64,000 bases of DNA from Bacillus multifaciens (lineage in GTDB: Bacteria; Bacillota; Bacilli; Bacillales; Bacillaceae_G), in NCBI RefSeq assembly GCF_030756675.1, contig NZ_JAVBXD010000017.1, positions 23,545 to 87,544 of the forward strand, given 5' to 3'. Shown here one piece after another: positions 6,291 to 61,106 of this stretch; position 1 is the first letter of the stretch, and every line of letters begins with the position of its first letter. Made by a program: the position numbers and the translations under genes. The notes under the pieces were generated by a model. The model saw only the letters and a list, made by a program, of their open reading frames with translations, was not told where the DNA came from and searched no databases.

Positions 6291-6381
6291 TCCATGCCTA
6301 GCATGGGAGAGGTTCGCGAACTCCCTCTATAAAAAACTAAGAAGAGAACAATGTCCTTTTTGATATTGTTTTGTTTTTTTT
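6291..6381 (+). promoter_or_regulatory. preQ1-I riboswitch with terminator
   Basis: The aptamer is at 6308-6340: AGAGG pairs with CCTCT around a loop, followed by the conserved A-rich tail ATAAAAAACTAA that forms the preQ1-I pseudoknot. A separate hairpin CCATGC/GCATGG (6292-6306) sits directly before it. Downstream, AACAAT/ATTGTT with a T-run (6347-6381) is the likely terminator. When preQ1 is plentiful the que genes should be turned off. Class and position match the known Bacillus queC leader. Confidence 0.9.
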
Positions 6382-6442
6382 AGTATGACAGTTCAAGAAC
6401 GCTCTTTCTTCTTGTAATCGAAAAAAGAGGAGAATGAGTGAA

Positions 6443-7105
6443 ATGAAAAAGGAAAAAGCGGTTGTTGTTTTTAGCGGTGGTCAAGATAGTACAACATGTT
6501 TATTTTGGGCACTTGAACAGTTTGAAGAAGTAGAAACAGTGACGTTTGATTATAATCAACGTCATAAACTCGAAATTGACTGTGCTGCGGAAATCGCAAA
6601 AGAACTAGGTGTAAAGCATACTGTACTTGATATGAGCTTGTTAAATCAGCTCGCTCCTAATGCATTAACACGTACAGATATGGAAATTACACATGAAGAT
6701 GGCGAGTTGCCGTCGACATTTGTGGATGGACGTAACCTATTGTTTTTATCGTTTGCGGCTGTACTAGCGAAACAAGTAGGGGCACGTCATATCGTAACAG
6801 GTGTGTGTGAAACAGACTTTAGTGGTTATCCAGATTGCCGTGATGTATTTGTGAAATCGTTAAACGTTACATTAAATTTATCGATGGATTATCCATTCGT
6901 TATTCATACACCACTTATGTGGATTGATAAAGCAGAAACGTGGAAACTGGCAGATGAACTTGGAGCTTTTGAATTTGTCCGTGAAAAAACGTTAACGTGC
7001 TATAACGGAATTATTGGTGATGGCTGCGGTGAATGTCCAGCGTGTCAGCTTCGTAAAGCAGGACTTGATAAATATGTACAAGAACGTGAAGGAGCGAAAG
7101 CATAA
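6443..7105 (+). CDS. queC: 7-cyano-7-deazaguanine synthase QueC
   Basis: QueC converts 7-carboxy-7-deazaguanine to preQ0 using ATP and ammonia. The product of 220 residues has the ATP-pyrophosphatase loop SGGQDS (11-16) and four zinc cysteines near the C-terminus (about 186, 195, 198 and 201, in [16 protein letters not shown]). The ATG at 6443 is chosen over one at 6434 because AGAGGAG ends one base before 6434 but about ten before 6443, and the family begins [13 protein letters not shown]. First gene of a four-gene operon under the preQ1 riboswitch; its stop overlaps the next start (TAATG). Confidence 0.97.
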
Positions 7106-7599
7106 TGACACAAGACTTCTTTGGATTTCGCATTGTTGAAAATTTACAAAAAATAGATCAGGATATCGAGCGTAAGCAACTGAAGTATCATAATAAGCGT
7201 GTTATGGTTAGTAAAGAATTTACGTTTGATGCTGCCCATCATCTGCACTGTTATGAAGGGAAATGTAAAAACCTTCATGGACATACGTATAAAGTAATTT
7301 TTGGAATTAGTGGTTATGTCAATGAAATTGGCTTAACGATTGATTTTGGTGATATAAAAGAAATTTGGAAAAATGAAATTGAAATATATTTAGATCATCG
7401 TTACTTAAATGAAACACTTCCAGCTATGAATACAACTGCTGAAAATATGGTTGTATGGATTTTTGAGAAAATGGAAGAGGCACTAACAAAAGGTGATCGA
7501 CAAAATGAATATAAAGGGGCGCGTGTTGAGTTTGTGCGCTTATTTGAAACACCAACAAGCTATGCAGAAGTAAGACGGGAGTGGATGATTGGTGAGTAA
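7105..7599 (+). CDS. queD: 6-carboxy-5,6,7,8-tetrahydropterin synthase QueD
   Basis: QueD makes 6-carboxytetrahydropterin from dihydroneopterin triphosphate, the first committed step of 7-deazaguanine synthesis. The 164-residue protein shows the zinc and catalytic set around DAAHHLHCYEGKCKNLHGH: His45/46, Cys54, His58 and His60. It has a roughly 30-residue N-terminal extension compared with the short E. coli enzyme, which I recall as normal for this Bacillus form. It is translationally coupled to queC by a TAATG overlap. Confidence 0.95.
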   Translation: MTQDFFGFRIVENLQKIDQDIERKQLKYHNKRVMVSKEFTFDAAHHLHCYEGKCKNLHGHTYKVIFGISGYVNEIGLTIDFGDIKEIWKNEIEIYLDHRYLNETLPAMNTTAENMVVWIFEKMEEALTKGDRQNEYKGARVEFVRLFETPTSYAEVRREWMIGE

Positions 7600-8308
7600 C
7601 ATTCCTGTTTTGGAAATATTTGGACCGACAATTCAAGGAGAAGGAATGGTTGTTGGCCAAAAAACAATGTTTGTTCGTACAGCAGGTTGTGATTATAGCT
7701 GTGCATGGTGTGATTCTGCATTTACATGGGATGGTTCTGCGAAAGAGCAAATTCGTCAAATGTCGCCAGAAGAGATTTTTTCTGAACTCGTGCAAATTGG
7801 TGAGGAAAATTTCTCACATGTAACCATTTCTGGTGGAAACCCTGCATTGTTGAAGCATTTAGGAGAATTGATCTCTTTATTAAAAAAGAACGGCATTCGT
7901 ACAGCAATTGAAACGCAAGGAAGTAAATGGCAAGATTGGTTACTTCATATAGATGAGGTGACAATTTCGCCGAAGCCGCCGAGTTCAAAGATGTCAACGA
8001 ATTTTAGTATGTTAGATTCAATTATCGAGCGGTTAGATGGAAAAGAGTTTAGCTTAAAAGTAGTTGTATTTGATGATCAAGATTTTGTATATGCAAAAGA
8101 AGTGCATGAACGTTATCCGCACGTTCCGTTTTTCTTACAAGTTGGAAATGATGATACGAAGACGACGGATGATGTTTCATTAATTCAGCGTCTTCTTATG
8201 AAATATGAGTGGCTTATTGATAAAGCTGTGCAATGTAAGGAAATGAATGATGCAAAAGTATTACCGCAGCTCCACGCTTTAGTGTGGGGAAATAAACGCG
8301 GTGTGTAA
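7592..8308 (+). CDS. queE: 7-carboxy-7-deazaguanine synthase QueE
   Basis: A radical S-adenosylmethionine enzyme that contracts carboxytetrahydropterin to 7-carboxy-7-deazaguanine. The iron-sulfur motif is visible as CDYSCAWC (Cys33, Cys37, Cys40), preceded by GPTIQGEG; TISGGNPA follows as the SAM-binding glycine motif. Start: TTG at 7589 and GTG at 7592 are both possible; GTG gives MSNIPVLEIF, matching the family. It overlaps the end of queD by 8 bases, consistent with coupled translation. Confidence 0.95.
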   Translation: MSNIPVLEIFGPTIQGEGMVVGQKTMFVRTAGCDYSCAWCDSAFTWDGSAKEQIRQMSPEEIFSELVQIGEENFSHVTISGGNPALLKHLGELISLLKKNGIRTAIETQGSKWQDWLLHIDEVTISPKPPSSKMSTNFSMLDSIIERLDGKEFSLKVVVFDDQDFVYAKEVHERYPHVPFFLQVGNDDTKTTDDVSLIQRLLMKYEWLIDKAVQCKEMNDAKVLPQLHALVWGNKRGV

Positions 8309-8326
8309 GTGAAGGGAGATTTTTAG

Positions 8327-8824
8327 ATGACTGGAAGAAAAGATGAAGATTTAAAAGATGTAACATTATTAGGAAATCAAAATACAAAATATTTATTTGA
8401 ATATAGCCCAGAAATTTTAGAGACGTTTGATAATAATCATCCAAATCGTGATTATTTTGTAAAATTTAATTGTCCAGAGTTCACAAGTTTATGTCCGAAA
8501 ACAGGTCAACCAGATTTTGCGACAATTTATATTAGCTATATTCCAGAACAAAAAATGGTAGAGAGTAAATCTTTAAAGTTATATTTATTTAGTTTCCGTA
8601 ACCATGGAGATTTCCATGAAGATTGTATGAATGTCATTATGAATGACTTAATTAAACTGATGGATCCACGCTATATCGAAGTGTGGGGCAAGTTTACACC
8701 GCGTGGTGGTATTTCTATTGATCCATATTGTAACTATGGACGTCCTGGTACAAAATATGAAAAAATGGCTGAATATCGTTTAATGAATCACGATTTATAT
8801 CCAGAAACAGTAGATAATCGTTAA
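8327..8824 (+). CDS. queF: NADPH-dependent 7-cyano-7-deazaguanine reductase QueF
   Basis: QueF reduces preQ0 to preQ1, the base later put into tRNA by the transglycosylase. The 165-residue unimodular form is seen, with the catalytic cysteine in [14 protein letters not shown] (Cys56; Asp63 follows) and the NADPH-side region [10 protein letters not shown]. The ATG follows AAGGGAG. Last gene of the queCDEF operon, ended by a strong hairpin. Confidence 0.96.
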
Positions 8825-10221: not shown

Positions 10222-10277
10222 ATATATAATACAACGGCACAATTATGAAATAATAATTGTGCCGTTGTATTATATAT
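10222..10277. terminator. Long bidirectional terminator
   Basis: An inverted repeat of about 22-24 bp (10222-10245 with 10254-10277) between two convergent genes; the core is ACAACGGCACAATTA. Confidence 0.85.
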
Positions 10278-10827
10278 GTTTAACTAGATGGGCATATGGT
10301 TCGCCCACAAGCATAAGTGTGTTATCTTGTGTATAGCCGAGTTTTTTATAAAGAGAAAACGCAGGTTTGTTTTCTAAGTTTACTAGCAATGAGATTTTCT
10401 CATGCCCTTCTTCTTGAGCGTATGTTTCAGCTGCAAGAATTAAATTTGAACCGATACCTTGTCCACCATATGTAGATGAAACAGATAGAGTATCAATATA
10501 ATATTCATCTTCTTCTGCTTCTTTTTCTAATATAATAGAAGAATCTTGTTTCATGTCTCGTAACTGTTTTACAATTGGTTCATCTAGTTGAGTTGCTTCA
10601 CTTCCGTGGTAGGCTACAATAATACCAACAGCCTTTCCATCTCGTTCTTCAACAAAACAATTTTCATAACTAAGTCGGTTTTCTTTTTTCGAAAACCAAT
10701 ATTCTAAACCTTCTAAAACTTCCGTTTCATTTGTGCCACCTGTTAATTTTTCAGCAATTTCATGCAGTGCGTTGTACAATAATGGAGATATTGCTTGAGC
10801 ATCTGTTTGTTTTGCTTTCCGAATCAT
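10270..10827 (-). CDS. GNAT-family N-acetyltransferase
   Basis: A 185-residue acetyl-CoA-dependent acyltransferase. Motif A for acetyl-CoA binding is seen as YGGQGIGSNLILAAE, with the upstream strand YIDTLSVSSTYGGQ and a C-terminal NKPAFSLYKKLGY. The substrate cannot be told. The start at 10827 (MIRKAKQTDA) is chosen because AGGAGGG lies 5 bases before it; a longer frame begins 7 codons upstream across the binding site. Confidence 0.85.
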   Translation of the reverse strand: MIRKAKQTDAQAISPLLYNALHEIAEKLTGGTNETEVLEGLEYWFSKKENRLSYENCFVEERDGKAVGIIVAYHGSEATQLDEPIVKQLRDMKQDSSIILEKEAEEDEYYIDTLSVSSTYGGQGIGSNLILAAETYAQEEGHEKISLLVNLENKPAFSLYKKLGYTQDNTLMLVGEPYAHLVKHI

Positions 10828-11910: not shown

Positions 11911-12270
11911 ATGTTAATTGCATATGATTCTATGACAGGAAACGTGAAGCGTTTCATTCACAAATTAAATATGCCGGCCGTTCAAATTAATGAAAATCTC
12001 GTATTAGATGAAGAATATGTCCTTATTACGTATACAACAGGTTTTGGAAATGTGCCGGAACGTGTTTTGCAATTTTTAGAGCGTAATCATGAACGCTTGA
12101 AAGGAGTAGCTGCAAGCGGAAATCGCAATTGGGGAGATATGTTTGGAGCAAGTGCAGACAAAATTGCAACGAGATATGAAGTGCCGGTTGTATCAAAATT
12201 TGAGTTATCTGGAACAAATAAAGATGTAGAATTTTTTAAAGAGAGGGTGCTGGAGATTGCGACACATTGA
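11911..12270 (+). CDS. nrdI: NrdI flavodoxin-like protein
   Basis: NrdI is the flavodoxin that supplies the oxidant for assembling the manganese-tyrosyl radical cofactor of NrdF. The 119-residue product has the FMN phosphate loop YDSMTGNVKRF near the N-terminus, TYTTGFGNVP in the middle and ASGNRNWGDMFG, the glycine-rich loop typical of NrdI. It follows AAAAGGAGGG closely and overlaps the start of nrdE by 14 bases. First gene of nrdI-nrdE-nrdF. Confidence 0.95.
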   Translation: MLIAYDSMTGNVKRFIHKLNMPAVQINENLVLDEEYVLITYTTGFGNVPERVLQFLERNHERLKGVAASGNRNWGDMFGASADKIATRYEVPVVSKFELSGTNKDVEFFKERVLEIATH

Positions 12271-14690
12271 ATTGAATAATGAGATCACGCAAATGCAGGA
12301 CGGGTTCTATCAGCTTCACAAAGATAAAGAGGCACTGGCTGTCTTTATGGAAGAGGCGAAAGAGAATACCGTTCGTTTTGATAGCGTGGCAGAACGCATC
12401 GAGTATATGTTAGAGCATGACTACTACTATGATGTGTTAAGCGAATATAAGATGGACGAGGTGGAAGCTGTATACGATATCGCATATGGCGAAAAGTTTG
12501 AGTTTCAATCTTATATGGCAGCATCTAAGTTTTATAAAGATTACGCGTTAAAAACGAATGATCAAAAGCAATACTTAGAAAGTTATCCTGATCGCGTAGC
12601 AATTGTATCGTTATACTTAGGACGAGGAAACGTAGAGAAGGCGAAACAATTCGCAAGCATGATTGTCAAACAAAACTATCAACCAGCGACACCAACCTTT
12701 TTAAATGCAGGTAGAAGCAGAAGAGGAGAAATGGTGTCTTGTTTCTTGTTAGAGATGGACGACAGCTTAAACTCGATTGGGTTTAATATTAATACAGCAA
12801 TGCAGTTATCAAAAATCGGTGGCGGCGTAGCGCTCAGCTTGAGCAAACTACGAGCACGTGGTGAGCAAATTAAAGGTATTGAAAATGCAGCAAGTGGTGT
12901 CGTACCAGTTATGAAATTACTTGAAGATTCGTTTTCGTATGCGAATCAGTTGGGCCAACGAAAAGGTGCCGGCGCTGTATATTTAAATATTTTCCATTGG
13001 GACATTATTGAGTTTTTGGATTAATTGGTAGTCCCTCTATACAGTAATGTATATGAGAAAACCTTGTGAACCTAGCCATTAGGGTGTCGCATTAGCGGCT
13101 AACGGTATCAGTTGAATAAGGAGTAAAGAAAAAGCTCGCGAAGAAGCTGACTAAGAGAGCCTACGGTCCATTATAAGTGGATAGCAGGTAATACCGTGCC
13201 AAGCTTGTTAGAAGTTGTTATCTAGCAAGAAGGTGTAGAGACTATCGAACGCGCGTCAATAGACGAAAGCAAGTAGAGTAGGCTGGAGATAGGCACCAGT
13301 CGAAGTGCAAGGCAGCCAGTTACAGGTTGATGATATAGTCCAACCTTCATAGAAATATGAAGACACGTTGACCAAAAAAATAAATGCCGACGAGAAGAGC
13401 CGTATTCAATCTCTTTCCATCGGAATTATCGTTCCAAGCAAGTTCTTTGAGCTTGCTGAGAAAAACGAACCATTCCATGTTTTCGCGCCTTATACAGTGT
13501 ATAAAGAGTACGGAAAACATTTAGACGATATCGATATTGATGAAATGTATGACGAACTGATGAGCAATCCAAATATCAAAAAGAAACCACTTGATATTAG
13601 TGCGCGCGATATGCTCATTAAAATTGCAATGATTCAGCTTGAGTCTGGCTATCCATACTTAATGTTTAAATCAAATGCGAATAAGCAACATCCGTTAAAG
13701 GGTATTGGAACTGTGAAGATGTCGAATCTTTGTACAGAAATCTTCCAGCTACAAGAAACATCTGAAATAAATGATTATGGTACAGATGACATTATCCGCC
13801 GCGATATTAATTGTAATTTAGGTTCACTAAATATCGTAAACGTGATGGAGAATAAAGAAATACGTGAAGCGGTTCATGCGGGAATGGAAGCTTTAACAGC
13901 TGTTTCTGATATGACAATTATTCCAAATGCACCGACTGTGAAAAAAGCAAATGAGGAGCTTCATTCTGTCGGTCTTGGAGCAATGAACCTACACGGTTAT
14001 TTAGCGAAAAATAAAATCGCTTATGAAAGTGCAGATGCGAAAGAATTCGCTCGTACGTTCTTTATGATGCTGAATTATTACTCCATCGAAAAGAGTATGG
14101 AAATTGCGAAAGAGAAAGGTGAAACCTTTAAAGACTTTGAGAAGTCAGATTATGCAAATGGCACATACTTTGAGAAGTATGAAACAACGGATTATAGTCC
14201 GGTAACTGAGAAAGTACAGCAGTTATTTGAAGGAATCCATGTTCCAACAAAAGAAGATTGGACAAGCTTAAAAGAACAAGTACAGAAACATGGTTTATAT
14301 AATTCATATAGATTAGCAATTGCTCCGACACAATCGATCAGTTACGTGCAGAATGCCACTTCATCTGTGATGCCGATCGTAAGCCAAATTGAATCTAGAA
14401 CGTATGCGAATGCAACGACATATTATCCAATGCCGTATTTATCAAAAGATACGTTCTGGTACTATAAATCTTCTTACGATATGAATCAGTTTAAGCTCAT
14501 TGATTTAATCGCAGAAGTTCAAGAGCATATTGACCAAGGGATTAGTACAATTCTTTATGTAAATAGTGATATTTCTACTCGTGAATTAGCACGTTATTAT
14601 ATTTATGCTCATAAAAAAGGATTAAAGAGCTTGTACTACACAAGAACACGTAAATTAAGTGTGGAAGAGTGTGTAGCCTGCACAGTATAA
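12257..14690 (+). CDS. nrdE: Ribonucleotide reductase class Ib large subunit NrdE, interrupted by a group I intron
   Basis: Reduces ribonucleoside diphosphates to deoxy forms with NrdF. Coding exons are 12257-13021 and 13371-14690; joined they give about 694 residues, the normal length for NrdE. Exon 1 (TTG start at 12257) carries the redox cysteine Cys162 in GEMVSCFLLEM and ends at Asp255. Exon 2 resumes with TKKINADEK, contains the active-site NLCTEIF and ends with the redox tail CVACTV. Reading straight through would meet a TAA immediately after exon 1, so splicing is needed for function. The short N-terminal cone of class Ib (no ATP cone) agrees with control at the level of transcription. 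Confidence 0.95.
13022..13370 (+). other. Group I intron in nrdE (349 nt, no endonuclease)
   Basis: The upstream exon ends in T (13021) and the insert ends in G (13370), as group I splicing requires. Removing 349 bases restores the frame exactly (Asp-Thr-Lys-Lys). Core elements are recognisable: GGTGTAGAGACTATCGAA near 13231 and GATATAGTCC near 13333 form the P7-type pairing (AGACTAT with ATAGTC), and GGATAGCAGGTAATACCGTG precedes. It is too short to code for a homing endonuclease. Introns at nrdE are known in the B. cereus group. Confidence 0.9.
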
Positions 14691-41081: not shown

Positions 41082-41357
41082 TTCGTGTCTCGGTTACAGC
41101 TAGTATATATTGGTTATTCTTTACTAGTACAAGTCACTGGATTGCTAAAGATCGGGCGATCATGCCAACAACTTTAGTGATTACGAATATGATGGATTGT
41201 ATTTGTAAACTGTATACACATACTAGTGTATCAGGAGCGGTCGTTGGAGCCGTAATGATGGAAGAGAGGTAGGGCTTTCATCCAGTATATGTTACTTTCC
41301 CGTTAGTTAAATATAGAAAAGAAGGCTACTTATTAATAAATGGTAGCCTTCTTTTAA
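41082..41357 (+). other. Transcribed region with unclear content (candidate ncRNA or gene remnant)
   Basis: Between a consensus promoter and a perfect 13-bp terminator (41317-41329 with 41343-41355). An open frame at 41069-41272 encodes protein-like sequence (WLFFTSTSHWIAKDRAIM, KLYTHTSVSGAVVGAVMMEE) but lacks a start codon and binding site near its beginning; the first ATG in frame is 41162. It may be a decayed small gene or a non-coding RNA. Confidence 0.4.
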
Positions 41358-45054: not shown

Positions 45055-45316
45055 GATAAAGCGTTGATAGGGAGTAGTAGTTGATTGTGAAGCCTCACAG
45101 AGAGTCGGTGGTTGGTGGAAACCGATGGTTCACGTTGACGAACATCGCCCTTGAGTGCCAAACTGAAGCACTTGCCTAGGTTTGGACGGTAGCTCCGTTA
45201 TTAGCTTGATTCTATTAGAGTCACTGAGGCAAGAATCTTTCTTGCAAAGAAGGGTGGTACCACGAGTCTTTCGTCCCTTCAGCACATAGCTGAAGTGTGG
45301 GCGAAAGACTTTTTTA
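45055..45316 (+). promoter_or_regulatory. T-box riboswitch, isoleucine type, before ilvB
   Basis: The T-box sequence AGGGTGGTACCACG is at 45251-45264, and a terminator (GTCTTTCG with CGAAAGAC plus six T) ends at 45315. In stem I, AGGGAGTAG near 45068 faces GAACATCGCCCT; AGGG pairs with CCCT and leaves ATC (45144-45146) as the specifier in the internal loop, followed by G. Uncharged tRNA-Ile should therefore allow transcription of ilvBNC-leuABCD. Confidence 0.9.
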
Positions 45317-51206: not shown

Positions 51207-52600
51207 TGGGAAAGACACTATTTGATAAACTATGGGAACGGCATATTGTAGCAACAGATGAGAATGGACTGGATTTATTATATATTGACCTTCATCTCGT
51301 TCATGAAGTAACATCACCGCAAGCCTTTGAGGGCTTGCGGCTTGCAAATCGAACTGTACGGCGTCCAGATTTAACGTTTGCGACAATGGATCATAATGTC
51401 CCGACAAAGGATGTATGGAACATTACAGATGAAATCGCAAAACAACAGATGGATACGCTTCGTCATAATTGCGAACAATTCCATGTACAATTAGCGGATA
51501 TGGGAGATGAAGGGCAAGGAATTGTGCATGTGATTGGGCCGGAACTTGGATTAACACAACCGGGAAAAACGATTGTGTGCGGCGATAGTCATACAGCGAC
51601 ACATGGAGCGTTTGGAGCGCTGGCGTTCGGGATTGGTACGAGCGAGGTTGAACATGTATTAGCGACTCAAACTTTGTGGCAGCGAAAGCCGAAAGCGATG
51701 GGAGTAGAATTAAAAGGAACGCTGCCAAATGGTGTATATGCAAAAGATATTATTTTACATTTACTTGCTACATATGGTGTGTCTATTGGGACAGGACATG
51801 TAATAGAGTTCTATGGAGACGCTGTAGAAGAAATGACAATGGAAGAGCGAATGACGCTTTGTAATATGGCGATTGAGGGAGGAGCAAAAGCAGGCATGAT
51901 TGCTCCGGATGAAACGACGTTTACTTATGTAAGAGAGCGCCAATATGCACCGAAAGAATTTGAACAAGCAGTGGAAAACTGGCGTGAATTATACACGGAT
52001 GAAGATGCAGTGTATGACGCAGTCTTTACAATTGATGTGTCAAATTTGGCGCCGTATGTAACATGGGGTACCAATCCAGGAATGGGCCTTCGCATTGACG
52101 AGGTACTTCCGGCACCGAATGATAAAAACGATGAACGTGCCTATGCATATATGGGCCTTCAACCAGGACAACGTGTAACGGATATTCCAATTCAACACGT
52201 GTTTATCGGTTCTTGTACAAATTCCCGTTTGTCTGATTTAGAAATTGCTGCTGTGGTTGTAAGGGGGAGGAAGGTAAAAACGGGCGTGCGAGCTCTTGTT
52301 GTCCCAGGATCAAAACAAGTGAGAGATGCAGCAATGAAAAAAGGATTACACCTTATTTTTGAAGAAGCGGGATTTGAATGGCGAGAACCTGGATGTTCAA
52401 TGTGTCTTGGCATGAATCCAGATCAAGTGCCAGAAGGTGAACATTGTGCTTCTACTTCAAACCGGAATTTTGAAGGAAGGCAAGGAAAAGGAGCAAGAAC
52501 ACATCTCGTTAGCCCAGCTATGGCTGCAGCCGCAGCAATTCATGGTTCTTTTGTTGATGTGAGAAAGGAGAACTACGATGAAGCCATTTCATATTCATAA
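51206..52600 (+). CDS. leuC: 3-isopropylmalate dehydratase large subunit LeuC
   Basis: Aconitase-family subunit of 464 residues carrying the 4Fe-4S cluster: cysteines in [12 protein letters not shown] and [25 protein letters not shown] is the substrate-side motif. ATG at 51206 chosen (GGGGAG ten bases upstream; family begins [10 protein letters not shown]). Ends inside leuD, which starts 23 bases earlier. Confidence 0.96.
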
Positions 52601-53156
52601 AGGGAAAATTGCGGTGTTGATGCATGATAATATTGATACCGATCAAATCATTCCAAAGCAGTATTTAAAACGGATTGAAAGGACAGGGTTTGGAGAGTTT
52701 CTGTTTGATGAATGGCGTTATTTAGATAACCGTCAAGAAAACCTTGCATTTCCGCTGAACGCTCCTGAGCGAAAAGGAGCTACGATTTTAATTACAGGAG
52801 AAAACTTCGGTTGCGGATCTTCTAGAGAACATGCCCCGTGGGCGCTTGCAGATTACGGATTTCGGGTTATTATTTCGGGAAGTTTTGCGGATATTTTTTA
52901 TATGAATTGTACAAAAAATGGAATTCTTCCGATTGTAATGGAAAAGGACATTCGTAAGCAACTTGCATCTATAGCTCCGCAGACAATGATAGAAATAGAT
53001 TTAGAGAATGAAGTAATAATAACTCCTGAGAATCGTTTTTCTTTTTCTATTGAACGCATGTGGAAAGAAAAGTTGCTGAGCGGTTTAGATGATATTGGGG
53101 TTACACTTCAGTATGAGAATGCGATTACTGAATATGAAATGAAAATATGTCGTTAA
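52578..53156 (+). CDS. leuD: 3-isopropylmalate dehydratase small subunit LeuD
   Basis: Swivel-domain partner of LeuC, 192 residues, with [15 protein letters not shown] and [20 protein letters not shown]. Overlaps leuC by 23 bases. Last gene of the ilv-leu run; no clear hairpin terminator is seen before the his promoter. Confidence 0.96.
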
Positions 53157-53210
53157 TGGATAGAATTACAAAATGAATGCCACATTTTGTTGGAAGTTAA
53201 AAGAAAATTA

Positions 53211-53239
53211 TTTACTTTCAGTTTAATTGGTAGTATACT
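53211..53239 (+). promoter_or_regulatory. Promoter of the his leader
   Basis: TTTACT (53211-53216) and TATACT (53234-53239) with a 17-base spacer. It lies directly before the leader peptide gene. Confidence 0.7.
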
Positions 53240-53268
53240 GACCTAAAATTAAGAGGAGAAAGGGAGTA

Positions 53269-53325
53269 ATGACAATGTTTACTTTCCAATCAGTCATTTT
53301 ATTTACACAACATCATCATACGTAA
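53269..53325 (+). CDS. his operon leader peptide, 18 aa with three consecutive His codons
   Basis: ATG at 53269 follows AGAGGAGAAAGGGAGTA, an excellent binding site. The peptide is MTMFTFQSVILFTQHHHT; the three CAT codons (53311-53319) sit just before the stop at 53323-53325. A nest of competing hairpins starts two bases later and ends in a terminator upstream of hisZ. This is the form of a ribosome-mediated attenuator that senses charged tRNA-His. Confidence 0.8.
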   Translation: MTMFTFQSVILFTQHHHT

Positions 53326-53326
53326 A

Positions 53327-53432
53327 CCCTTGAACCTAGCGTGAAAAAACGTGTAGGTACAAGGGTTATTCCTGTTGTACCTACATTCTCCAAAGAGCTA
53401 TGTAGGTATTTTTATCTACATAGCTCTTTTTT
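53327..53432 (+). promoter_or_regulatory. Attenuator of the his operon (alternative hairpins and terminator)
   Basis: Five segments can pair in turn. 1:2 is CCCTTGAACCTA (53327-53338) with TAGGTACAAGGG (53354-53365), one mismatch. 2:3 is GTAGGTACAA (53353-53362) with TTGTACCTAC (53375-53384). 3:4 is TACCTACAT (53378-53386) with ATGTAGGTA (53400-53408). 4:5 is the terminator AGAGCTATGTAG (53394-53405) with CTACATAGCTCT (53416-53427) plus T-run. States 1:2 with 3:4 (readthrough) and 2:3 with 4:5 (termination) exclude each other. Confidence 0.8.
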
Positions 53433-53596
53433 CGTTTTCTAAGCGCTAAGTTATGGATGTATGAGTTATGGTGAAGATGAAACCGCTAGTGAGCGAAGTT
53501 CAAGAAATGAAAAAGGGACATATAAGAGAATCATGTTCAATATGTTATCTTTGTAGATTTTTTAAATACATGTGTTAAGAAAGTGGAGGTGTGATG
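53433..53596. other. Spacer between his attenuator and hisZ
   Basis: 164 bases; no gene, only the hisZ ribosome binding site (GTGGAGGTG) at its end. Confidence 0.5.
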
Positions 53597-54859
53597 ATGA
53601 AAAAATGGAAACGAGCCAATCCAAACGGAACGAGAGATTTTCTGTTTCAAGAATGTACATTAATGGAGGAGACTGAACAAAGGTTAAGGCGTACATTTAT
53701 TGAGAGGGGATACGAAGAAATACGGACACCTATGATCGAATTTTATGATGTATTTGCGTTTCAAAATCGTCCGATTGACGAGGAGAAGATGTATAAGTTT
53801 TTTGATTCTGAGGGACGCATCCTCGTTCTTAGACCTGATATGACAATCCCGCTGGCACGTGTAATTGGAACAAAAAGAATGGAAGCTCCTTTGAAATTAA
53901 CCTATAGTGGAAATGTTTTTAGGGCAAATGAATCTTTAACAGGAAAATATAACGAAATGACACAAACTGGAATTGAGATTATCGGCATCGATAATATACG
54001 TGCTGAAATCGAGTGTATTGTAAGCACAATTGTCGCCTTGCAATCAGTAGGTATTCAATCATTTAAAATTGAAATTGGTCAAGTGGAACTGTATAAGTCC
54101 ATTGTGAAAAAGTTGTCTTTACGAGAAGAAGATGAATATACATTGCGAGAATGTATTGAGAGTAAAAATTATGCTGCTTTGTCTCAGTTTCTCCAAGAAC
54201 AGCAATTAGATATGCAAGATGAAACGGTGCAATTATTACAAAAGTTACCTCGTTTATTTGGTGGATTAGAAGTGGTTGAAGAAGCTGAGAAACTTGCTGT
54301 CAGTCAAGAGATGCAGCGAGCCATTACACGGATCAAAGATATATATGAAAACATGGAACGTCTTGGGTATGGTGGGTATATTTCGATTGATCTGGGGATG
54401 ATTCAACATCTTCATTATTATACGGGTGTGATCTTTCGTGGATATATAAGTGATATTGGAGAAGAGATTGTCAGTGGCGGGAGATATGATGAACTTATTG
54501 GGAATTTTGGAGGGTCTTTATCTGCAGTAGGATTAGCGATACAAGTAAATCAAATTGTTCGGACTTTACAAGAACGGAAGGAAACACCATATCAAAAACA
54601 AATCGACGCTCTCATATATTACTCATTAGATGTGATTTCAGAAGCAGAGAAATTACGTACTTTATTTAGGAAAGATGGTGTGAAAGCAGAACTATCCATG
54701 TTAGACAATTTACAAGATACTTTTCAATTTGCAAGAAAACTCGATGTAAAAACGGTAATTGATGTATCAGGAGATACGTTAACTCAGTATGTATGGAAAG
54801 GGAAATGGATTATGCGGAAAAAAGGAGAATCCTCATGCGTAACATTCAAATTGCGTTAA
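53597..54859 (+). CDS. hisZ: ATP phosphoribosyltransferase regulatory subunit HisZ
   Basis: A histidyl-tRNA-synthetase-like protein (420 residues) that lacks the anticodon domain and activates the short form of HisG. Class II core motifs: [28 protein letters not shown] and [13 protein letters not shown]. The third in-frame start (53597, [14 protein letters not shown]) fits the binding site best. First structural gene of hisZGDBHAFIEJ; overlaps hisG by 25 bases. Confidence 0.95.
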
Positions 54860-55470
54860 CAAAAGGAAGGTTAGAAAAACATGTAATTCCCCTATTTGAA
54901 CGAATTGGTATTGATTGTTCGGAGCTAAAAGATAAAGGAAGGAAGCTCGTCTTTCAAAGTAAGAACGCAAACATTTCATTTATTCTTGTAAAGGCAGTTG
55001 ATGTCGTAACATATGTCGAGCATGGTATAGCTGATATTGGTATTGTTGGGAAAGATATTTTACTTGAATATGAGAATGATATATATGAAATGATTGACTT
55101 AGGAGTAGGCTGTTGTAAAGTTTGTGTTGCTTCCACTTTGTCTTATAATCCAAATGGTTATAACAAAAAAAGGATTGCAACTAAATATCCGAATATTACT
55201 TCTGCATACTTTCGTAAGAAGGGAGAAGATGTAGAGATTATTAAAATAGAAGGTTCTGTTGAGATTGCTCCTTTATTAGGATTAGCAGATGCAATCGTCG
55301 ATATTGTAGAAACAGGACAAACGTTGAAAGAAAACGGCTTAGTCGTATTCGAAGAAATTTGCGGCATTTCAGCACGTTTCATTGTAAATAAAGCATCTTT
55401 AAAAATGAAAAAAGACGAAATATTCAATATTATAAATAAAATAGAGAATGTTGTAGCAGAAAAGAAGTAA
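54835..55470 (+). CDS. hisG: ATP phosphoribosyltransferase HisG (short form)
   Basis: First enzyme of histidine synthesis, 211 residues, the short form that needs HisZ. Seen are the N-terminal [25 protein letters not shown] and the phosphate loop region [14 protein letters not shown]. The ATG at 54835 ([11 protein letters not shown]) lies within the end of hisZ behind AAAGGAG; the longer frame from 54793 is hisZ sequence in another frame. Confidence 0.96.
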
Positions 55471-55484
55471 AGGGGGAAGGAAAG

Positions 55485-56777
55485 ATGGACGTTATATATG
55501 AGGAGTATTCTACTATTTTATGTAAAGTGAAACAGCTTCGCGAACAAGCAAATACAGTAGAAGTAACGATTCAACAAGATGTGAAGGAAATTGTTACAAA
55601 TGTAAAGGAAAAGAAAGATGAAGCGCTTTTTTCGTATACAAAGGCTTTTGACGGAGTAGAGTTGGCTCAATTTCAAGTTTCAGAAGAAGAATTGGAAATC
55701 GCATATAGACGTGTCGACTCAGCATTTTTAGCAGCATTGCAAGAAGCAAAAAAGAATATCATTTCATATCACGAAAAGCAAAAAAGACAGGCATTTATTG
55801 ATACAGAGGAAGAAGGGATAATTCGAGGTCAAGTTGTTAGGCCGCTACAAACCGTTGGCGTGTATGTACCAGGGGGAACGGCAGCATATCCATCATCGGT
55901 TCTAATGAATGTTTTGCCAGCAAAAATTGCGGGCGTCAATAAAATTGTCATGGTAACACCGCCAAACCGTGAAGGAGTAGACCCTCATATTTTAGCAGCC
56001 GCAAAAGTTGCTGGGGTTGATGAGGTGTATACGGCGGGAGGAGCGCAAGCAATTGCTGCGTTAGCATACGGAACGGAATCGATTCCGCGTGTTGATAAGA
56101 TTGTCGGACCAGGAAATATATATGTTGCATTAGCGAAACGTGAAGTATTTGGTTCCGTTCATATCGATATGATTGCTGGTCCTTCTGAAATTGTTGTTAT
56201 TGCTGATGAAACGGGAAATGCGGCATATATTGCGGCTGATTTATTATCACAAGCAGAGCATGATAGACGAGCAACTGCTATTTGCATCACAACTTGTTTG
56301 GAATTAGCACAGGAAGTGAATAGGGAAATAGAAAAACAATTGATGAACCTACCGAGAAGTGAAATAGCTCGTGAATCCATTAATAGAAACGGAGCAATTC
56401 TTGTTGTAGAATCGCTGGAGCAAGCATTTCATCTCTCGAATGAAATCGCGCCGGAACATTTAGAACTGCATATAAAGGAACCAATGACAGCTCTTTCGTC
56501 AATTCAACATGCAGGCTCTATATTTTTAGGTCCATATGCGCCGGAGCCGTTAGGTGACTATATGGCAGGTCCGAATCATGTGTTACCAACGAGCGGAACA
56601 GCAAGATTCTTTTCCCCATTATCTGTTGATGATTTTATGAAAAAATCGAGCTTTTTATTTTATACAAAAGAGGCTCTTGGAAAGGTGCAACATCATATTG
56701 TCAATTTAGCGGAAAAAGAAGGGTTACAAGCCCATGCAAGAGCAATTGAGATTCGTTTTAAGGGAGGAGAAAAGTGA
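55485..56777 (+). CDS. hisD: Histidinol dehydrogenase HisD
   Basis: NAD- and zinc-dependent enzyme (430 residues) performing the last two oxidation steps. Motifs: [33 protein letters not shown] and the zinc-site region AEHD ([12 protein letters not shown]), with APEHLELH and [13 protein letters not shown]. Follows hisG by 14 bases behind AAAGGGGGAAGG. Confidence 0.97.
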
Positions 56778-57361
56778 TGCGCGCTGCAAAACAAACGAGA
56801 AGTACAACAGAAACAAAAATTTCAGTAGCACTGCAATTAGATGGGAATCAAGAAATTTCAATTCAAACAGGAGTTGGTTTTTTTGATCATATGCTGACTT
56901 TATTTGCAAAGCATGGTCGTTTCGGATTGCAAATTGAAGCCGATGGTGATGTATATATTGATGCTCATCATACAGTAGAAGATGTTGGAATTGTTCTGGG
57001 GAATTGTTTAAAAGAAGCACTTGGTGATAAAGCGGGAATTAACCGTTACGGTACAGCTTATGTACCAATGGACGAAGCATTAGGGTTTGTTACGGTTGAT
57101 ATAAGCGGAAGGTCGCATCTGGTATTTGATGGTGAATTTGCAAATCCCAAACTTGGTGACTTTGATACAGAGCTAACAGAAGAATTTTTTCGGGCAGTTG
57201 CTCATGCGGCGAACATCACATTACATGTACGTGTTTTATATGGAAGCAACACGCATCACAAAATTGAAGCGCTCTTTAAAGCATTTGGACGTGCACTCTG
57301 TGAGGCTACTGAGAAAAATGAAAAAATTGCCGGGGTAAATTCTACGAAAGGACTGTTGTAA
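56777..57361 (+). CDS. hisB: Imidazoleglycerol-phosphate dehydratase HisB
   Basis: Manganese enzyme of 194 residues, single-domain (not fused to the phosphatase). Metal-binding motifs [35 protein letters not shown] and [16 protein letters not shown] at 56777 is one codon after a GTG and better spaced from AAGGGAGGAG. Overlaps the hisD stop. Confidence 0.97.
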
Positions 57362-57362
57362 T

Positions 57363-57968
57363 TTGATTGCAATTGTAGATTATGGAATGGGCAATATTCG
57401 AAGTGTCGAGCAAGCATTAAAGCATATTGGTGCAACGTATGTTGTAACAGATGAAGCAGAAAGAATTGTAAATAGCAATGGTGTTATTTTGCCAGGAGTT
57501 GGTGCATTTCCAAGAGCGATGCGCTGTTTACAAGAAAAAGGACTTATTTCTGTTATACAAAAGGTTGCTCAAACAGGAAAACCGCTTTTAGGAATTTGTT
57601 TAGGCATGCAGCTTTTGTTTGAAGAAAGTGAAGAGATTGAGAGAACGAAAGGGTTAGGTTTGCTGCCAGGAAGAGTAAGGAAATTAAATGTGCCGTATAA
57701 AATTCCCCATATGGGATGGAATCAGCTGCAAAAGAAAATGGAACATCCTTTATGGAATGAAATAGAGGAAGAGCCCTTTGTTTATTATGTTCATTCTTAT
57801 TATGTACAATGTCCAATTGAAGTTGTAGTTGGTGGGAGTGAGTACGGTAATTTTGTACCAGGGCTTGTTGCAAAAGAAAATGTATTCGGAGCTCAGTTTC
57901 ACCCTGAAAAAAGTGGAGAAATAGGAATTCAAATGTTACGAAATTTTAAGGAGGTTATCGAGTCATGA
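57363..57968 (+). CDS. hisH: Imidazole glycerol phosphate synthase, glutaminase subunit HisH
   Basis: Class I glutamine amidotransferase of 201 residues that feeds ammonia to HisF. Nucleophile Cys in [13 protein letters not shown], His and Glu in [12 protein letters not shown], and oxyanion region LPGVGAFP. Rare TTG start one base after the hisB stop, so translation is probably coupled. Overlaps hisA by 4 bases. Confidence 0.96.
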
Positions 57969-58684
57969 AGGTCTTCCCAGCTATTGATTTGAAAAATGGG
58001 CGTTGCGTTCGTTTATATCAAGGGAAATTTCAACAAGAAACAGTAATGAATGAAAACCCTGTTGCTCAGGCGTTGTTATTTGAACAACTAGGTGCACGTG
58101 CATTGCACCTTGTCGATTTAGACGGCGCAGTTGCTGGTCGTTCAGAGAACTTTTCTGTCATTGAAGACATTTGCAAAGCAGTGCGCATTCCAGTGCAAGT
58201 TGGAGGAGGGATTCGTTCGCTTGCTGGGATCGAAACACTTTTATCAGTTGGAGTGATGAAAGTAATTCTTGGAACGGCGGCATTGAATGATCGCACATTT
58301 TTAGAAGAGGCAGTTCGTTTATACGGCGACAAAATTATCGTTGGAATTGATGCGAAAAATGGATATGTAGCAACGCGAGGATGGCTAGATATATCTGAAA
58401 CGTCATATGTACAATTAGCAAAGGAAATGGAGGAAGTAGGTGTACAGACACTTGTTTTTACTGACATTTCTAAAGATGGAACACTCGCCGGTCCAAATTT
58501 CGAACAATTACAAAAATTAAAAGATGAGATTTCACTTCAAATTGTTGCTTCTGGTGGTGTGAGTTCTCTTGCTGACGTTGAGAAGTTACAGAATATGAAC
58601 TTGTACGGCGTGATTATAGGGAAAGCACTATATGATAAAAAAGTTATGTTAGAAGAAGCATTGCAGGTGACAGGAGCATGTTAA
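57965..58684 (+). CDS. hisA: HisA, ProFAR isomerase
   Basis: A 239-residue TIM-barrel isomerase. Catalytic Asp in [13 protein letters not shown] (Asp8), phosphate-binding VGGGIRS and [10 protein letters not shown], and the second aspartate region [14 protein letters not shown]. Overlaps hisH (ATGA) and hisF. Confidence 0.97.
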
Positions 58685-59436
58685 CGAAGCGAATTATTCC
58701 GTGTTTAGATGTGAAAAATGGTCGCGTTGTAAAAGGAGTAAATTTTGTAGGATTGCAAGATGTTGGAGATCCTGTTGCAATCGCTGCTGCATACAACGAA
58801 GCGGGTGCGGATGAACTTGTGTTTTTAGATATAACAGCAACACACGAAGATAGGAAAACAATGATTGATGTCGTAGAGCGTACAGCAAATCAAGTATTTA
58901 TTCCTCTTACAGTAGGAGGCGGGATTTCCACTGTTCAAGATATGTATGGATTACTTCGGGCAGGTGCAGATAAAGTTTCATTAAACTCAGCGGCAGTGAA
59001 AAGGCCAGCATTAATTGAAGAAGGTGCAGAGCAATTTGGTTCTCAATGTATAGTTGCTGCAATTGATGCGAAGAAGAGTGGAGAAAACAAATGGAATGTA
59101 TATGTAAATGGCGGCCGCATTGATACAGGAATGGATGTAGTCGAATGGGCAAAGCGCGTGGAACGCCTAGGGGCTGGTGAATTACTGTTAACGAGCATGG
59201 ATGCTGATGGAACAAAAGATGGCTATGATTTATTGTTAACAGAAACAGTTTCAAAAGCGGTTGGTATTCCGGTGATTGCTTCGGGGGGATGTGGATCCAT
59301 TGAACATATTGCAGAGGTTTTTCAGCGAACATCGGCAAATGCCGCGTTAGCAGCTTCCATTTTTCATTACGGCGAGGCAACGATTCAAGAAACGAAACAA
59401 AAGTTGCAAAAAGAACAAATTGAGGTGAGATTGTGA
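58678..59436 (+). CDS. hisF: Imidazole glycerol phosphate synthase, cyclase subunit HisF
   Basis: Cyclase TIM barrel (252 residues), partner of HisH. Catalytic aspartates in [15 protein letters not shown] (Asp11) and [14 protein letters not shown] (Asp130 region); phosphate sites VGGGIS and ASGGCGS. Overlaps hisA by 7 and hisI by 4 bases. Confidence 0.97.
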
Positions 59437-59738
59437 AACCAGATTTTTCAAAAGGATTATTGCCAGCTGTTGTGATTGAAGAGGGTACAAAAGACGTTTT
59501 GATGTTAGCTTATATGAATGAAGAAGCGTATGAGAAAACAGTAGAGACAAAAACGACGTGGTTTTATTCGCGCTCACGAAGAGGTTTGTGGAATAAGGGA
59601 GAAACTTCAGGGCATTTTCAGTATGTTAAATCATTATATTTAGATTGCGATCAAGATGCGATTATGGTAGTTGTCCAGCAGATAGGTGTAGCTTGTCATA
59701 CAGGAGAAAAATCATGTTTTCATAATAAGGTGCTATAA
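59433..59738 (+). CDS. hisI: Phosphoribosyl-AMP cyclohydrolase HisI
   Basis: Zinc enzyme of 101 residues that opens the purine ring. Motifs: [48 protein letters not shown] (metal) and [10 protein letters not shown] (zinc cysteines). GTG start overlapping hisF. It is separate from HisE, whereas B. subtilis has the fused form. Confidence 0.96.
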
Positions 59739-59750
59739 GGGGGCAAGAAA

Positions 59751-60074
59751 ATGAACGATGTGTTGCAACAGTTGTATGAAACGATTGAGCAGAGAAAAGA
59801 TAATCTTGTTTCTGAGTCATATACAAATTACTTATTTACAAAAGGAGAAGATAAAATATTAAAGAAGTTAGGGGAAGAATGTACGGAAGTTATCATTGCA
59901 GCGAAAAATAATACAAAAGACGAGTTGATAAAAGAAGTTGCGGATCTTACGTATCATTGCTTAGTGTTACTCGTAGAAAAAAATGTCTCGTTACAAGAAA
60001 TAACAAAAGAATTACAAAAGCGGCAAGGTCAATTATCAAAAGTGGGCGAACGAAAAGACATTGATGCCTTATAG
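59751..60074 (+). CDS. hisE: Phosphoribosyl-ATP pyrophosphatase HisE
   Basis: All-alpha pyrophosphatase of 107 residues, MazG-like. Metal-binding glutamates are in [15 protein letters not shown] and KEVADLTYH. Follows hisI by 12 bases behind AAGGGGGC. Confidence 0.96.
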
Positions 60075-60086
60075 GAGGGGAGAAAC

Positions 60087-61106
60087 ATGAAAGTAGATTA
60101 TCACCTTCATTTAGAAGAAGGACCGTATTCTATGCGGTGGTTATCTCGTACAAATGAAGCGCTCGAGTATTTTACACCGATTGAGGAAGAGAAACATTCA
60201 ATGGAATGGATATTGAAAGCTGGGGAACGTTTGCAAAAGCGTGTAAAGGAAGGCGCATTTTCACAGGAGTGGATTGATTTATATTTAGAGGAAGCAGTGC
60301 AGAAAGGAATACGAGAAGTTGGAATAGTTGACCACTTATATCGTTTTTGCGAAGCTAAGGAATACTATGAGCGCTATGTCGATATTCGTAATACAGAATT
60401 AGGACAGCTGCAAAAAGAATGGCTAGATCAAGTTAGGGTAGAATCGATTACAAACTTTACAATGGCAATTGAAGAGGCGAAAGAAAGATGGAGCAAACGA
60501 GGCGTGACATTACGGCTTGGGATAGAGGCAGATTATTTCATAGGCGGGGAAGAAGAACTAGCGAAACTATTAACGTTAGGAAATTGGGATTATGTAATAG
60601 GTTCTGTTCATTTTATTAATGGATGGGGATTTGATAATCCAGATACAGATAATTATTTTAGACAGCATGATTTGCATGCGTTATATGAGACATTTTTTCA
60701 AACGTTAGAAAAAGCAATACGTTCTGGCTTATTTGATATTGTTGCACATTTAGATAATATAAAAGTGTTTAATTATCGCATAGATGAAAATGAGCAATTA
60801 CCATATTACGAAAAAATTGCGAAAGCGTTAATTGAAACGAATACAGCTACGGAAGTGAATGCTGGATTATATTATCGATATCCTGTAAGGGAAATGTGCC
60901 CGAGTCCTTTATTTTTACAGCGTTTAGTCCATCATGGTGTTCCGATTACCATCTCGTCAGATGCACATTTTCCGAATGATTTAGGAAGTTACGTACAAGA
61001 AAATATAGAATCGCTTCGTAATCACGGTGTGACGCATATTGCAACATTTGCAAAAAGAATTCGAAGCATGAAACCCCTCGAATATGTAAAAGAGAATGTT
61101 TTATGA
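60087..61106 (+). CDS. hisJ: Histidinol-phosphatase, PHP family (HisJ)
   Basis: Removes phosphate from histidinol phosphate. A 339-residue PHP-domain metalloenzyme: N-terminal metal pair DYHLHLEEG (His-X-His), IVDHLYRF, IGSVHFINGW, IVAHLDNIK and the C-terminal SSDAHFPND. With hisC absent from this cluster, it closes the operon. Twelve bases after hisE behind AGGAGGGG. Its stop TGA is followed directly by a family B repeat. Confidence 0.93.
   Translation: MKVDYHLHLEEGPYSMRWLSRTNEALEYFTPIEEEKHSMEWILKAGERLQKRVKEGAFSQEWIDLYLEEAVQKGIREVGIVDHLYRFCEAKEYYERYVDIRNTELGQLQKEWLDQVRVESITNFTMAIEEAKERWSKRGVTLRLGIEADYFIGGEEELAKLLTLGNWDYVIGSVHFINGWGFDNPDTDNYFRQHDLHALYETFFQTLEKAIRSGLFDIVAHLDNIKVFNYRIDENEQLPYYEKIAKALIETNTATEVNAGLYYRYPVREMCPSPLFLQRLVHHGVPITISSDAHFPNDLGSYVQENIESLRNHGVTHIATFAKRIRSMKPLEYVKENVL

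What the first reader, a model, noticed from the sequence alone, without database searches (positions are those of the whole stretch)
53211..53432. A histidine leader peptide with a five-segment attenuator in front of a Bacillus his operon
An 18-codon gene with a strong binding site ends QHHHT, and segment 1 of a chain of competing hairpins starts two bases after its stop. Pairings 1:2 plus 3:4 exclude 2:3 plus 4:5, and 4:5 is a terminator with a T-run. A ribosome waiting at the first His codon (A site 53311) should leave segment 1 free, form 1:2, then 3:4, and read through; one that reaches the stop covers segment 1, allowing 2:3 and the terminator. In Firmicutes such genes are more often under T-box or protein control, so a translating-ribosome attenuator here is noteworthy. 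The footprint argument is inference; stalls at the third His could partly cover segment 1.
Basis: partly seen in the sequence, partly recalled or inferred. Interest (0 to 1): 0.8.

Follow-up and report, generated by a model that had tools for sequence, protein, structure and literature searches.

The report
Histidine-sensing attenuator with five competing segments
A short histidine-rich gene and a chain of five mutually competing RNA segments in front of a bacterial histidine operon very probably let ribosomes switch the operon on when histidine runs short; such elements were predicted before in this bacterial group, but here relatives show that the competing pairings are conserved by coordinated changes, that the wiring is the reverse of the textbook case, and that other histidine-related genes carry the same element.

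Summary
An 18-codon gene (53269-53325, MTMFTFQSVILFTQHHHT) is followed by five segments that pair 1:2, 2:3, 3:4 and 4:5; 4:5 is an intrinsic terminator. No dinucleotide shuffle reproduced it (0 of 5000).

It is not a first discovery. Histidine leader peptides before hisZ and hisS* in bacilli were predicted in 2010 (PMC2965389), and before his operons of six Bacillus cereus-group species in 2022 (PMC9413887); parts of both were read. My searches showed no experiment.

Added here: (1) relatives in 18 of 19 genomes of the Ectobacillus family, before hisZ, a hisS*-like gene, an amino-acid permease, a YuiF-like transporter and two other genes; (2) coordinated changes along the chain; (3) first His codon to segment 1 is 14-15 nt in 22 of 24 leaders; (4) ribosome-masked folds hold the terminator's 5' arm upstream more with the first His codon than with the stop codon in the A site, in 24 of 24 leaders, not all independent.

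The wiring is inverted against Listeria Rli60: segment 1 must be free, so an untranslated leader should read through. That is untested, and in the model it holds for most, not all, leaders.

The parts
53211..53239 (+). sigma-A-type promoter-like site, TTTACT-17-TATACT
   Evidence: consensus scan (9 of 12); such sites are not more frequent than in shuffles, so weak
53253..53266 (+). Shine-Dalgarno-like stretch GAGGAGAAAGGGAG before the leader start
   Evidence: sequence
53269..53325 (+). leader peptide gene MTMFTFQSVILFTQHHHT*, His codons at 53311, 53314, 53317
   Evidence: His run near the end of the ORF kept in relatives
53325..53342 (+). segment 1 (must be free for read-through)
53349..53367 (+). 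segment 2, pairs with 1 or 3
53372..53386 (+). segment 3, pairs with 2 or 4
53392..53409 (+). segment 4, pairs with 3 (antiterminator) or 5 (terminator)
53413..53432 (+). segment 5 and T-run; 4:5 is the intrinsic terminator
53591..54859 (+). hisZ (ATP phosphoribosyltransferase regulatory subunit), first gene of the controlled operon; likely start ATG 53594 or 53597
   Evidence: ORF; Pfam tRNA-synt_His PF13393 2.3e-70; the name HisZ rests on operon context and on annotated tblastn hits
54793..61106 (+). rest of the his operon (hisG, D, B, H, A, F, I, E and a hisJ-like phosphatase gene)
   Evidence: ORFs; HisG by annotated tblastn hits; the other names only from reading the translations

Best explanation
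It is a ribosome-mediated transcription attenuator that senses charged tRNA-His. When histidine is short, the leading ribosome stalls with the first His codon (53311) in its A site; its front edge then lies at about 53322, segment 1 (from 53325) is free, 1:2 forms, 2 cannot take 3, 3 takes 4 and the terminator is delayed past the T-run, so hisZ and the operon are transcribed. When histidine is plentiful, the ribosome runs to the stop codon and covers the 5' half of segment 1; 2:3 forms, 4 is left for 5 and transcription ends near 53432. The ribosome at the stop codon is thus the repressor, and a leader without ribosomes should mostly read through. Shown here: the gene, the four helices, their conservation by coordinated changes, the near-fixed His-to-segment-1 spacing, and an equilibrium switch in ribosome-masked folds. 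Inferred: translation of the leader, the footprint edge (recalled, A-site base plus 11), the kinetic outcome and the response to histidine.
For: Masked folds of the window: His1 state, 3:4 is 1.00 from RNA end 53405 to 53421 with 1:2 at 1.00; stop state, 2:3 is 1.00 from 53384 to 53405 and 4:5 is 1.00 at 53421. Relatives: 9 other type-A leaders (L022, L086-L089, L099, L114, L115, L121) and 14 type-B hisZ leaders (L008-L020, L023). One column reads A-T-A-T-A in segments 1-5 of the window and G-C-G-C-G in L086, L087 and L089. On 5 type-A rows (4 distinct), 2:3 plus 4:5: 97.4% of 114 cells paired, 6 pairs changed on both sides (1 of 500 shuffles as high), covariation score reached by 0 of 500; 1:2 plus 3:4: 96.7% of 90 cells, 3 such pairs (58 of 500), score reached by 10 of 500. 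His1-to-segment-1 distance 14-15 nt in 22 of 24; terminator 5' arm paired upstream more in the His1 than in the stop state in 24 of 24; terminator takes over earlier in the stop state in 23 of 24. No HisR (TIGR02531) match in 18 of 19 family genomes, B. subtilis control positive.
Against: No expression data. The folds are equilibrium folds; in the window's stop state 3:4 still reaches 0.61-0.68 for RNA ends 53409-53415, and in the His1 state 4:5 wins once 53425 is out. At the chosen point the stop-state value stays high in L008 (0.99), window and L114 (0.77). Untranslated, the terminator takes over later than in the stop state in 18 of 24 leaders, at the same point in 5 (L086, L089, L115, L008, L009) and earlier in 1 (L121); upstream pairing is 0.86 or more in 21 of 24, but 0.49 in L089, 0.07 in L115 and 0.13 in L121. 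L089 also has only 0.32 in the His1 state. In 1:2 the pair 53337:53355 is C-A in L086, L087 and L089, next to the covarying column, and L088 mismatches the column itself. Covariation inside type-B is weak because the sequences hardly vary (11 distinct of 14). RNAP outruns ribosomes in B. subtilis (PMC9226507, passage), which would push this wiring towards read-through unless RNAP pauses; no pause is shown. L024, a hisS*-like leader with HHH, shows no clear five-segment chain by eye. No other Bacillus cereus-group genome could be compared.
Confidence: 0.76

Rival explanations
1. Conventional wiring: the stalled ribosome covers part of the chain and a ribosome-free leader terminates (superattenuation); the apparent segment 1 has another role, for instance an RNAP pause hairpin that synchronises RNAP and ribosome.
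For: This is how E. coli his/trp (recalled) and Listeria Rli60 (PMC5864092, passages) work; the untranslated state of L115 and L121 models as terminating and that of L086, L089, L008 and L009 takes over as early as the stop state.
Against: In the window, masking segment 1 favours 2:3 and so 4:5; the first His codon sits 14-15 nt before segment 1, just out of reach of a stalled ribosome, in 22 of 24 leaders.
Confidence: 0.14
2. A protein or small molecule, not the ribosome, chooses between the folds (TRAP-like or riboswitch-like); the short gene is incidental or tunes initiation.
For: Some sequence is conserved beyond pairing, e.g. AGCCCTNTTCGTGTT in type-B and GGGTTATTC or GGGCTATTCCTG in the 2-3 loop of many type-A leaders.
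Against: The His run and its spacing to segment 1 are kept while the N-terminal part of the peptide differs between groups; no Rfam family at gathering score; the genes behind it include hisZ, hisS*-like genes and transporters.
Confidence: 0.06
3. Plain terminator of the upstream ilv-leu operon with a chance short ORF.
For: It is the only terminator-like site on the + strand in the scan of 52500-54000, so it may serve that operon too.
Against: Shuffle test; covariation in helices of relatives that lie before different genes.
Confidence: 0.02

Closest known systems
Histidine leader peptides before hisZ and hisS* in bacilli (Naville and Gautheret 2010, PMC2965389; section 10 whole, and passages)
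   Same: Same gene (hisZ), short ORF with a run of His codons and a premature terminator; hisZ and hisS* 5' regions said to be highly similar, as found here (L022, L089).
   Different: In the text read, no segment chain, no wiring, no permease or YuiF targets; figures are not held.
RNA attenuators of the his operon in six Bacillus cereus-group species, five Eubacteriales and six Erysipelotrichales (Ashniev et al. 2022, PMC9413887; passages)
   Same: Leader peptides with three to five His codons in a row, attenuator, terminator and antiterminator hairpins, no HisR in the group. The window is very probably of this class.
   Different: Additional file 6 with the alignments could not be opened, so their segment scheme is unknown to me; the attenuator targets in the table seen are his operons; the word Ectobacillus does not occur in the paper (0 occurrences).
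Listeria Rli60 ilv-leu attenuator (PMC5864092, passages)
   Same: Experimentally supported ribosome-mediated attenuator in a Gram-positive, leader peptide rich in codons of the regulated amino acids.
   Different: Four segments; start-codon and RBS mutants act as superattenuators. The five-segment chain here predicts the opposite.
His operon leader of enterobacteria, Rfam RF00514 (recalled)
   Same: His codons, chain of mutually exclusive hairpins, terminator.
   Different: There the stalled ribosome masks the first segment and an untranslated leader terminates (recalled); no match here.

Membership tests
Ribosome-mediated amino-acid attenuator | Short ORF with Shine-Dalgarno and codons for the amino acid of the downstream pathway | tested here: met
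Ribosome-mediated amino-acid attenuator | Mutually exclusive antiterminator and terminator | tested here: met
Ribosome-mediated amino-acid attenuator | Ribosome position selects the fold in the right sense | tested here: met
   by ribosome-masked equilibrium folding only, not by experiment: upstream pairing of the terminator arm higher in the His1 than in the stop state in 24 of 24 leaders, earlier terminator takeover in the stop state in 23 of 24; several type-B rows are identical, so the 24 are not independent
Ribosome-mediated amino-acid attenuator | Expression rises on starvation for that amino acid | not testable with these tools
   no expression data
Enterobacterial-type His leader (RF00514) | Match to the covariance model | tested here: not met
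   no match at gathering score nor at E up to 10 over 53150-53600
Enterobacterial-type wiring (superattenuation without translation) | Untranslated leader folds into the terminator | tested here: inconclusive
   window: no, 0.97 upstream pairing; 21 of 24 leaders at 0.86 or more, L089 0.49, L115 0.07, L121 0.13; terminator takeover later than in the stop state in 18, equal in 5, earlier in 1
Bacillus cereus-group his attenuator (PMC9413887) | Sequence and fold alignable with the published leaders | not testable with these tools
   supplement not readable; no other B. cereus-group genome turned up in the searches made
T-box (His) | T-box model match before the his operon | tested here: not met
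   the only T-box at gathering score in the window is at 45055-45281, before ilvB

The most novel reading that the evidence does not exclude
A dedicated family of inverted attenuators forms a histidine regulon in the Bacillus cereus/Ectobacillus lineage: one five-segment element, found before hisZ, hisS*-like genes, an amino-acid permease, a YuiF-like transporter and other genes, stands in for the HisR repressor, and in it the ribosome at the stop codon, not the stalled one, does the work, so that uncoupled (runaway) transcription gives read-through rather than termination.
Probability: 0.45. Interest if true: 0.66.

Novelty: new variant of a known kind. Interest (0 to 1): 0.52.

Why it matters
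RNAP outruns the ribosome in B. subtilis (PMC9226507, passage), which should make ribosome-mediated attenuation difficult there (inference). A conserved element whose expected default without a ribosome is read-through makes that question testable with few changes (start codon, His codons) in a reporter. The chain, with one column changing together along the segments, would also make an Rfam family (no gathering match now), and it suggests how a leader-peptide regulon can take over from a repressor.

Tried and rejected
Rfam scans of the region gave nothing at gathering score and only chance-like matches below it. Search for other Bacillus cereus-group copies: no whole genome held for the window; HisZ in genome contigs gave two Ectobacillus loci, and I saw no His leader in the 500 nt before their hisZ; family and order searches gave no hisZ closer than 69% (19 genomes and 397 genomes drawn from a larger group); plasmids, phages and viral contigs gave no relative of the leader and no close hisZ. 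A short pattern search was too noisy (L065 and L066 looked unrelated). Weak R1/R2 matches were judged by eye to be plain terminators: L090-L095, L117, the second G019 match (L122). In one search, 13 of the 27 genomes with a match at E up to 0.01 had only weak matches (best E 2e-6); six of those loci were looked at. L118-L120 were not looked at. R2 also gives weak matches elsewhere in the window, best 10222-10327 minus strand E 3.6e-5, not followed. The G219 hisS*-like gene looked leaderless at first because the leader lies far upstream (L089). Acetoanaerobium noterae (L033) has MNLLILTTVQLHHHY* before hisG and a weak R2 match starting exactly at its first His codon (E 3.7e-4), but its wiring could not be settled. 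A kinetic folding simulation was not done. No structure prediction was run.

Rows dropped: alignment A5, used for the type-A pair counts, leaves out L022, which MAFFT misaligns in segments 1-2 (A4), and L099, L114, L115 and L121, found later (A6, A7). One search used 21 of 24 leaders; repeat it on all 24 (one search stopped with a script error after the 10 type-A rows, whose values it had printed; one search did the 14 type-B rows with another way of finding the stem start).

Full report
WHAT IS THERE. The window carries ilvE, ilvD, a T-box, ilvB, ilvN, ilvC, leuA, leuB, leuC, leuD and then the his operon, led by hisZ (most names from reading the translations). NrdF and DltA of the window match solved proteins almost identically over their whole length (their source organisms are recalled as B. 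cereus group). The window is therefore very probably from that group, species unknown. Between leuD (ends 53156) and hisZ lies the finding.

THE CHAIN. Four helices share five segments: 1:2 (-22.0), 2:3 (-19.1), 3:4 (-14.4) and 4:5 (-23.3 kcal/mol), the last a 17-bp terminator. In 5000 dinucleotide shuffles of the 67 nt before the terminator none had both competing hairpins at the observed stability. The minimum-energy fold of 53240-53435 contains 1:2 and 4:5 together; the antiterminator 3:4 is a state of the growing RNA only.

RIBOSOME POSITIONS. I folded the free RNA downstream of assumed ribosome edges (A-site base plus 11; recalled footprint) for growing transcripts. No ribosome or His1 in the A site: 1:2 is kept (0.72 at the lowest, His1, RNA end 53400) and 3:4 is 0.98-1.00 from 53405 to 53418; at 53421 it is 1.00 (His1) or 0.88 (none). 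Stop codon in the A site: no 1:2, 2:3 is 1.00 from 53384 to 53405; 3:4 then reaches 0.61-0.68 at 53409-53415 before 2:3 plus 4:5 take over (0.95 for 2:3 at 53418; 1.00 for both at 53421). Once RNA to 53425 is out, 4:5 wins in every state, so the choice is between forming the terminator before or after RNAP leaves the T-run.

RELATIVES. No other B. cereus-group genome turned up. A scan of fetched loci for short ORFs with three His codons found leaders in the family of Ectobacillus. Type-B leaders (L008-L020, L023...QHHHPPRV...KHHHRKRD and one HDHH variant) lie before a diverged hisZ, followed by hisG and hisD where I read the genes (L008, L013, L015). They carry the same order of segments: 1:2 of 16 pairs, 2:3, a 3:4 helix of up to 12 pairs and 4:5. 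A covariance model of type-B (R1) run on 377 Bacillales genomes matched 27 at E up to 0.01; 14 are strong (E 5e-12 or better): ten type-B and four others. The four are close relatives of the window's element (type-A): L086 and L087 before a 150-163-aa protein (that of L087 has no Pfam or NCBIfam match; L086 not tested), L088 before an APC-type amino-acid permease (PF13520; no NCBIfam model over its cut-off), L089 before a hisS*-like gene, but about 590 nt after the terminator, so that link is less sure. L022 before another hisS*-like gene (histidine--tRNA ligase by NCBIfam) has the chain too. A model of five type-A rows (R2) matched 18 of 19 genomes of the Ectobacillus family at E 3.5e-8 or better, type-B leaders included (E 2e-9 to 3.5e-8), which ties both types together. 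It gave L099 (Ectobacillus panaciterrae genome G002, similar permease), L114 (G002, before an alpha/beta hydrolase gene), L115 and the G003 copy fetched as L121 (before proteins with PF03553 and PF13726 that I take for YuiF-like histidine permeases; that equation is recalled; in L121 the gene starts about 440 nt after the terminator). In the family of G219 only G219 itself has a convincing match (5 of 15 match at E up to 0.001, four of them weakly).

COVARIATION. Positions 53338 in segment 1, 53354 in 2, 53383 in 3, 53403 in 4 and 53418 in 5 read A, T, A, T, A in the window and G, C, G, C, G in L086, L087 and L089; L088 reads T, T, A, T, G (one 1:2 mismatch, one wobble). The segment-1 end of this series is the weakest: the neighbouring 1:2 pair 53337:53355 is a C-A mismatch in L086, L087 and L089. 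For segments 2 to 5 both mutually exclusive folds are clearly kept. Counts on A5 (5 rows, 4 distinct): 2:3 plus 4:5, 97.4% of 114 cells paired, 6 pairs changed on both sides (shuffle mean 2.3; 1 of 500 as high), slid controls 26-49% paired; 1:2 plus 3:4, 96.7% of 90 cells paired, 3 pairs changed on both sides (shuffle mean 1.6; 58 of 500 as high), slid controls 27-46%. In L022, L114 and L115 a neighbouring column has changed as well: GTAGGTA in segment 4 of the window is GTGGGTA, and TACCTAC in segment 3 is TACCCAC or TACCCGC (read by eye). In type-B the pairs are kept in 98-99% of cells but hardly vary, so they add little.

SPACING AND SWITCH IN ALL LEADERS. The first base of segment 1 lies 14 or 15 nt after the first base of the first His codon in 22 of 24 leaders; the exceptions are L089 (two His codons, 11) and L009 (HDHH, 18). 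That is just beyond the expected front of a ribosome waiting at that codon. I then measured how far the loop-proximal 8 nt of the terminator's 5' arm are paired with anything upstream when three bases of segment 5 are out: higher with the first His codon than with the stop codon in the A site in 24 of 24, and 0.86 or more in the His1 state in 23 of 24 (L089 0.32). The terminator took over at an earlier RNA end in the stop state in 23 of 24, L089 being equal. The margin is small in some (L008 1.00 against 0.99; L114 0.86 against 0.77). Untranslated, 21 of 24 are at 0.86 or more, but L089 is at 0.49, L115 at 0.07 and L121 at 0.13; by the takeover measure the untranslated state is later than the stop state in 18, equal in 5 (L086, L089, L115, L008, L009) and earlier in 1 (L121). 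The 14 type-B rows hold 11 distinct sequences, so these counts are not independent.

HOW IT MOST LIKELY WORKS. A ribosome held at the first His codon leaves segment 1 free and gives read-through; a ribosome at the stop codon covers segment 1 and gives termination. The ribosome at the stop codon is the repressor. This is the reverse of the four-segment Listeria Rli60, where loss of the start codon or RBS lowered ilvD (PMC5864092, passages). RNAP outruns the ribosome in B. subtilis (PMC9226507, passage, citing Johnson 2020, which I did not read); with the present wiring that would mean read-through unless RNAP pauses between segments 2 and 4. I have no evidence for a pause. Because the scan of 52500-54000 shows no other terminator-like site on the + strand, transcripts reading in from leuD would meet the same switch (inference).

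WHAT IS KNOWN. PMC2965389 (2010; section 10 read) reported histidine leader peptides before hisZ and hisS* in bacilli. PMC9413887 (2022; passages) reported attenuators before the his operon in six B. cereus-group species, with leader, antiterminator and terminator, and the absence of HisR there. I find no HisR (TIGR02531) match in 18 of 19 genomes of the Ectobacillus family (G008 has HisR and the element; G001 has neither). The listings of seven searches showed no experimental work on these leaders and no report of the reversed wiring; they cover open-licence PMC papers only and were not built to rule out every precedent. The supplement with the published alignments could not be opened, so the wiring may already be drawn there.

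VERDICT. Observation confirmed, interpretation supported, existence of the element already published as a prediction. New here, as far as those searches reach, are the coordinated changes along the chain, the near-fixed spacing, the reversed wiring and the spread to transporters in a related family.

Noticed in passing
window 13012-13362: nrdE is split into two ORFs (12257-13024 and 13368-14690) by a probable group I intron: RF00028, 45.8 bits, E 1.7e-10, just under the gathering score of 50.
   Followed up: partly
window 45055-45281: T-box leader (RF00230, 139.5 bits) between ilvD and ilvB, so the ilv-leu part has its own tRNA-sensing control.
   Followed up: no
window 6303-6346: PreQ1 riboswitch (RF00522) before a queuosine-type gene cluster at 6434-8824 (gene names from reading the translations).
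   Followed up: no
window 41211-41289: BsrC small RNA match on the minus strand, 43.4 bits against a gathering score of 38.
   Followed up: no
L008-L020, L023 and L033:4207: Conserved stretch AGCCCTNTTCGTGTT (with one variant, TTCGTGTA) inside the type-B attenuators, close to one in the his leader of Acetoanaerobium noterae, a distant Clostridia relative.
   Followed up: partly
L086:1610-2101 (reverse complement) and L087:1610-2101: A 150-163-aa protein sits behind a type-A His attenuator in two genomes; the one of L087 has no Pfam or NCBIfam match, so it may be an unknown histidine-related gene.
   Followed up: partly
L024:1323-1376 (reverse complement): hisS*-like leader MFFIKKLTVNQLHHHKN in G008, followed by a hairpin and a terminator but without a clear five-segment chain.
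   Followed up: partly
G008: The only genome of the 19 with a HisR match (TIGR02531, 141.6 bits); it carries the type-B attenuator as well, perhaps an intermediate stage.
   Followed up: no
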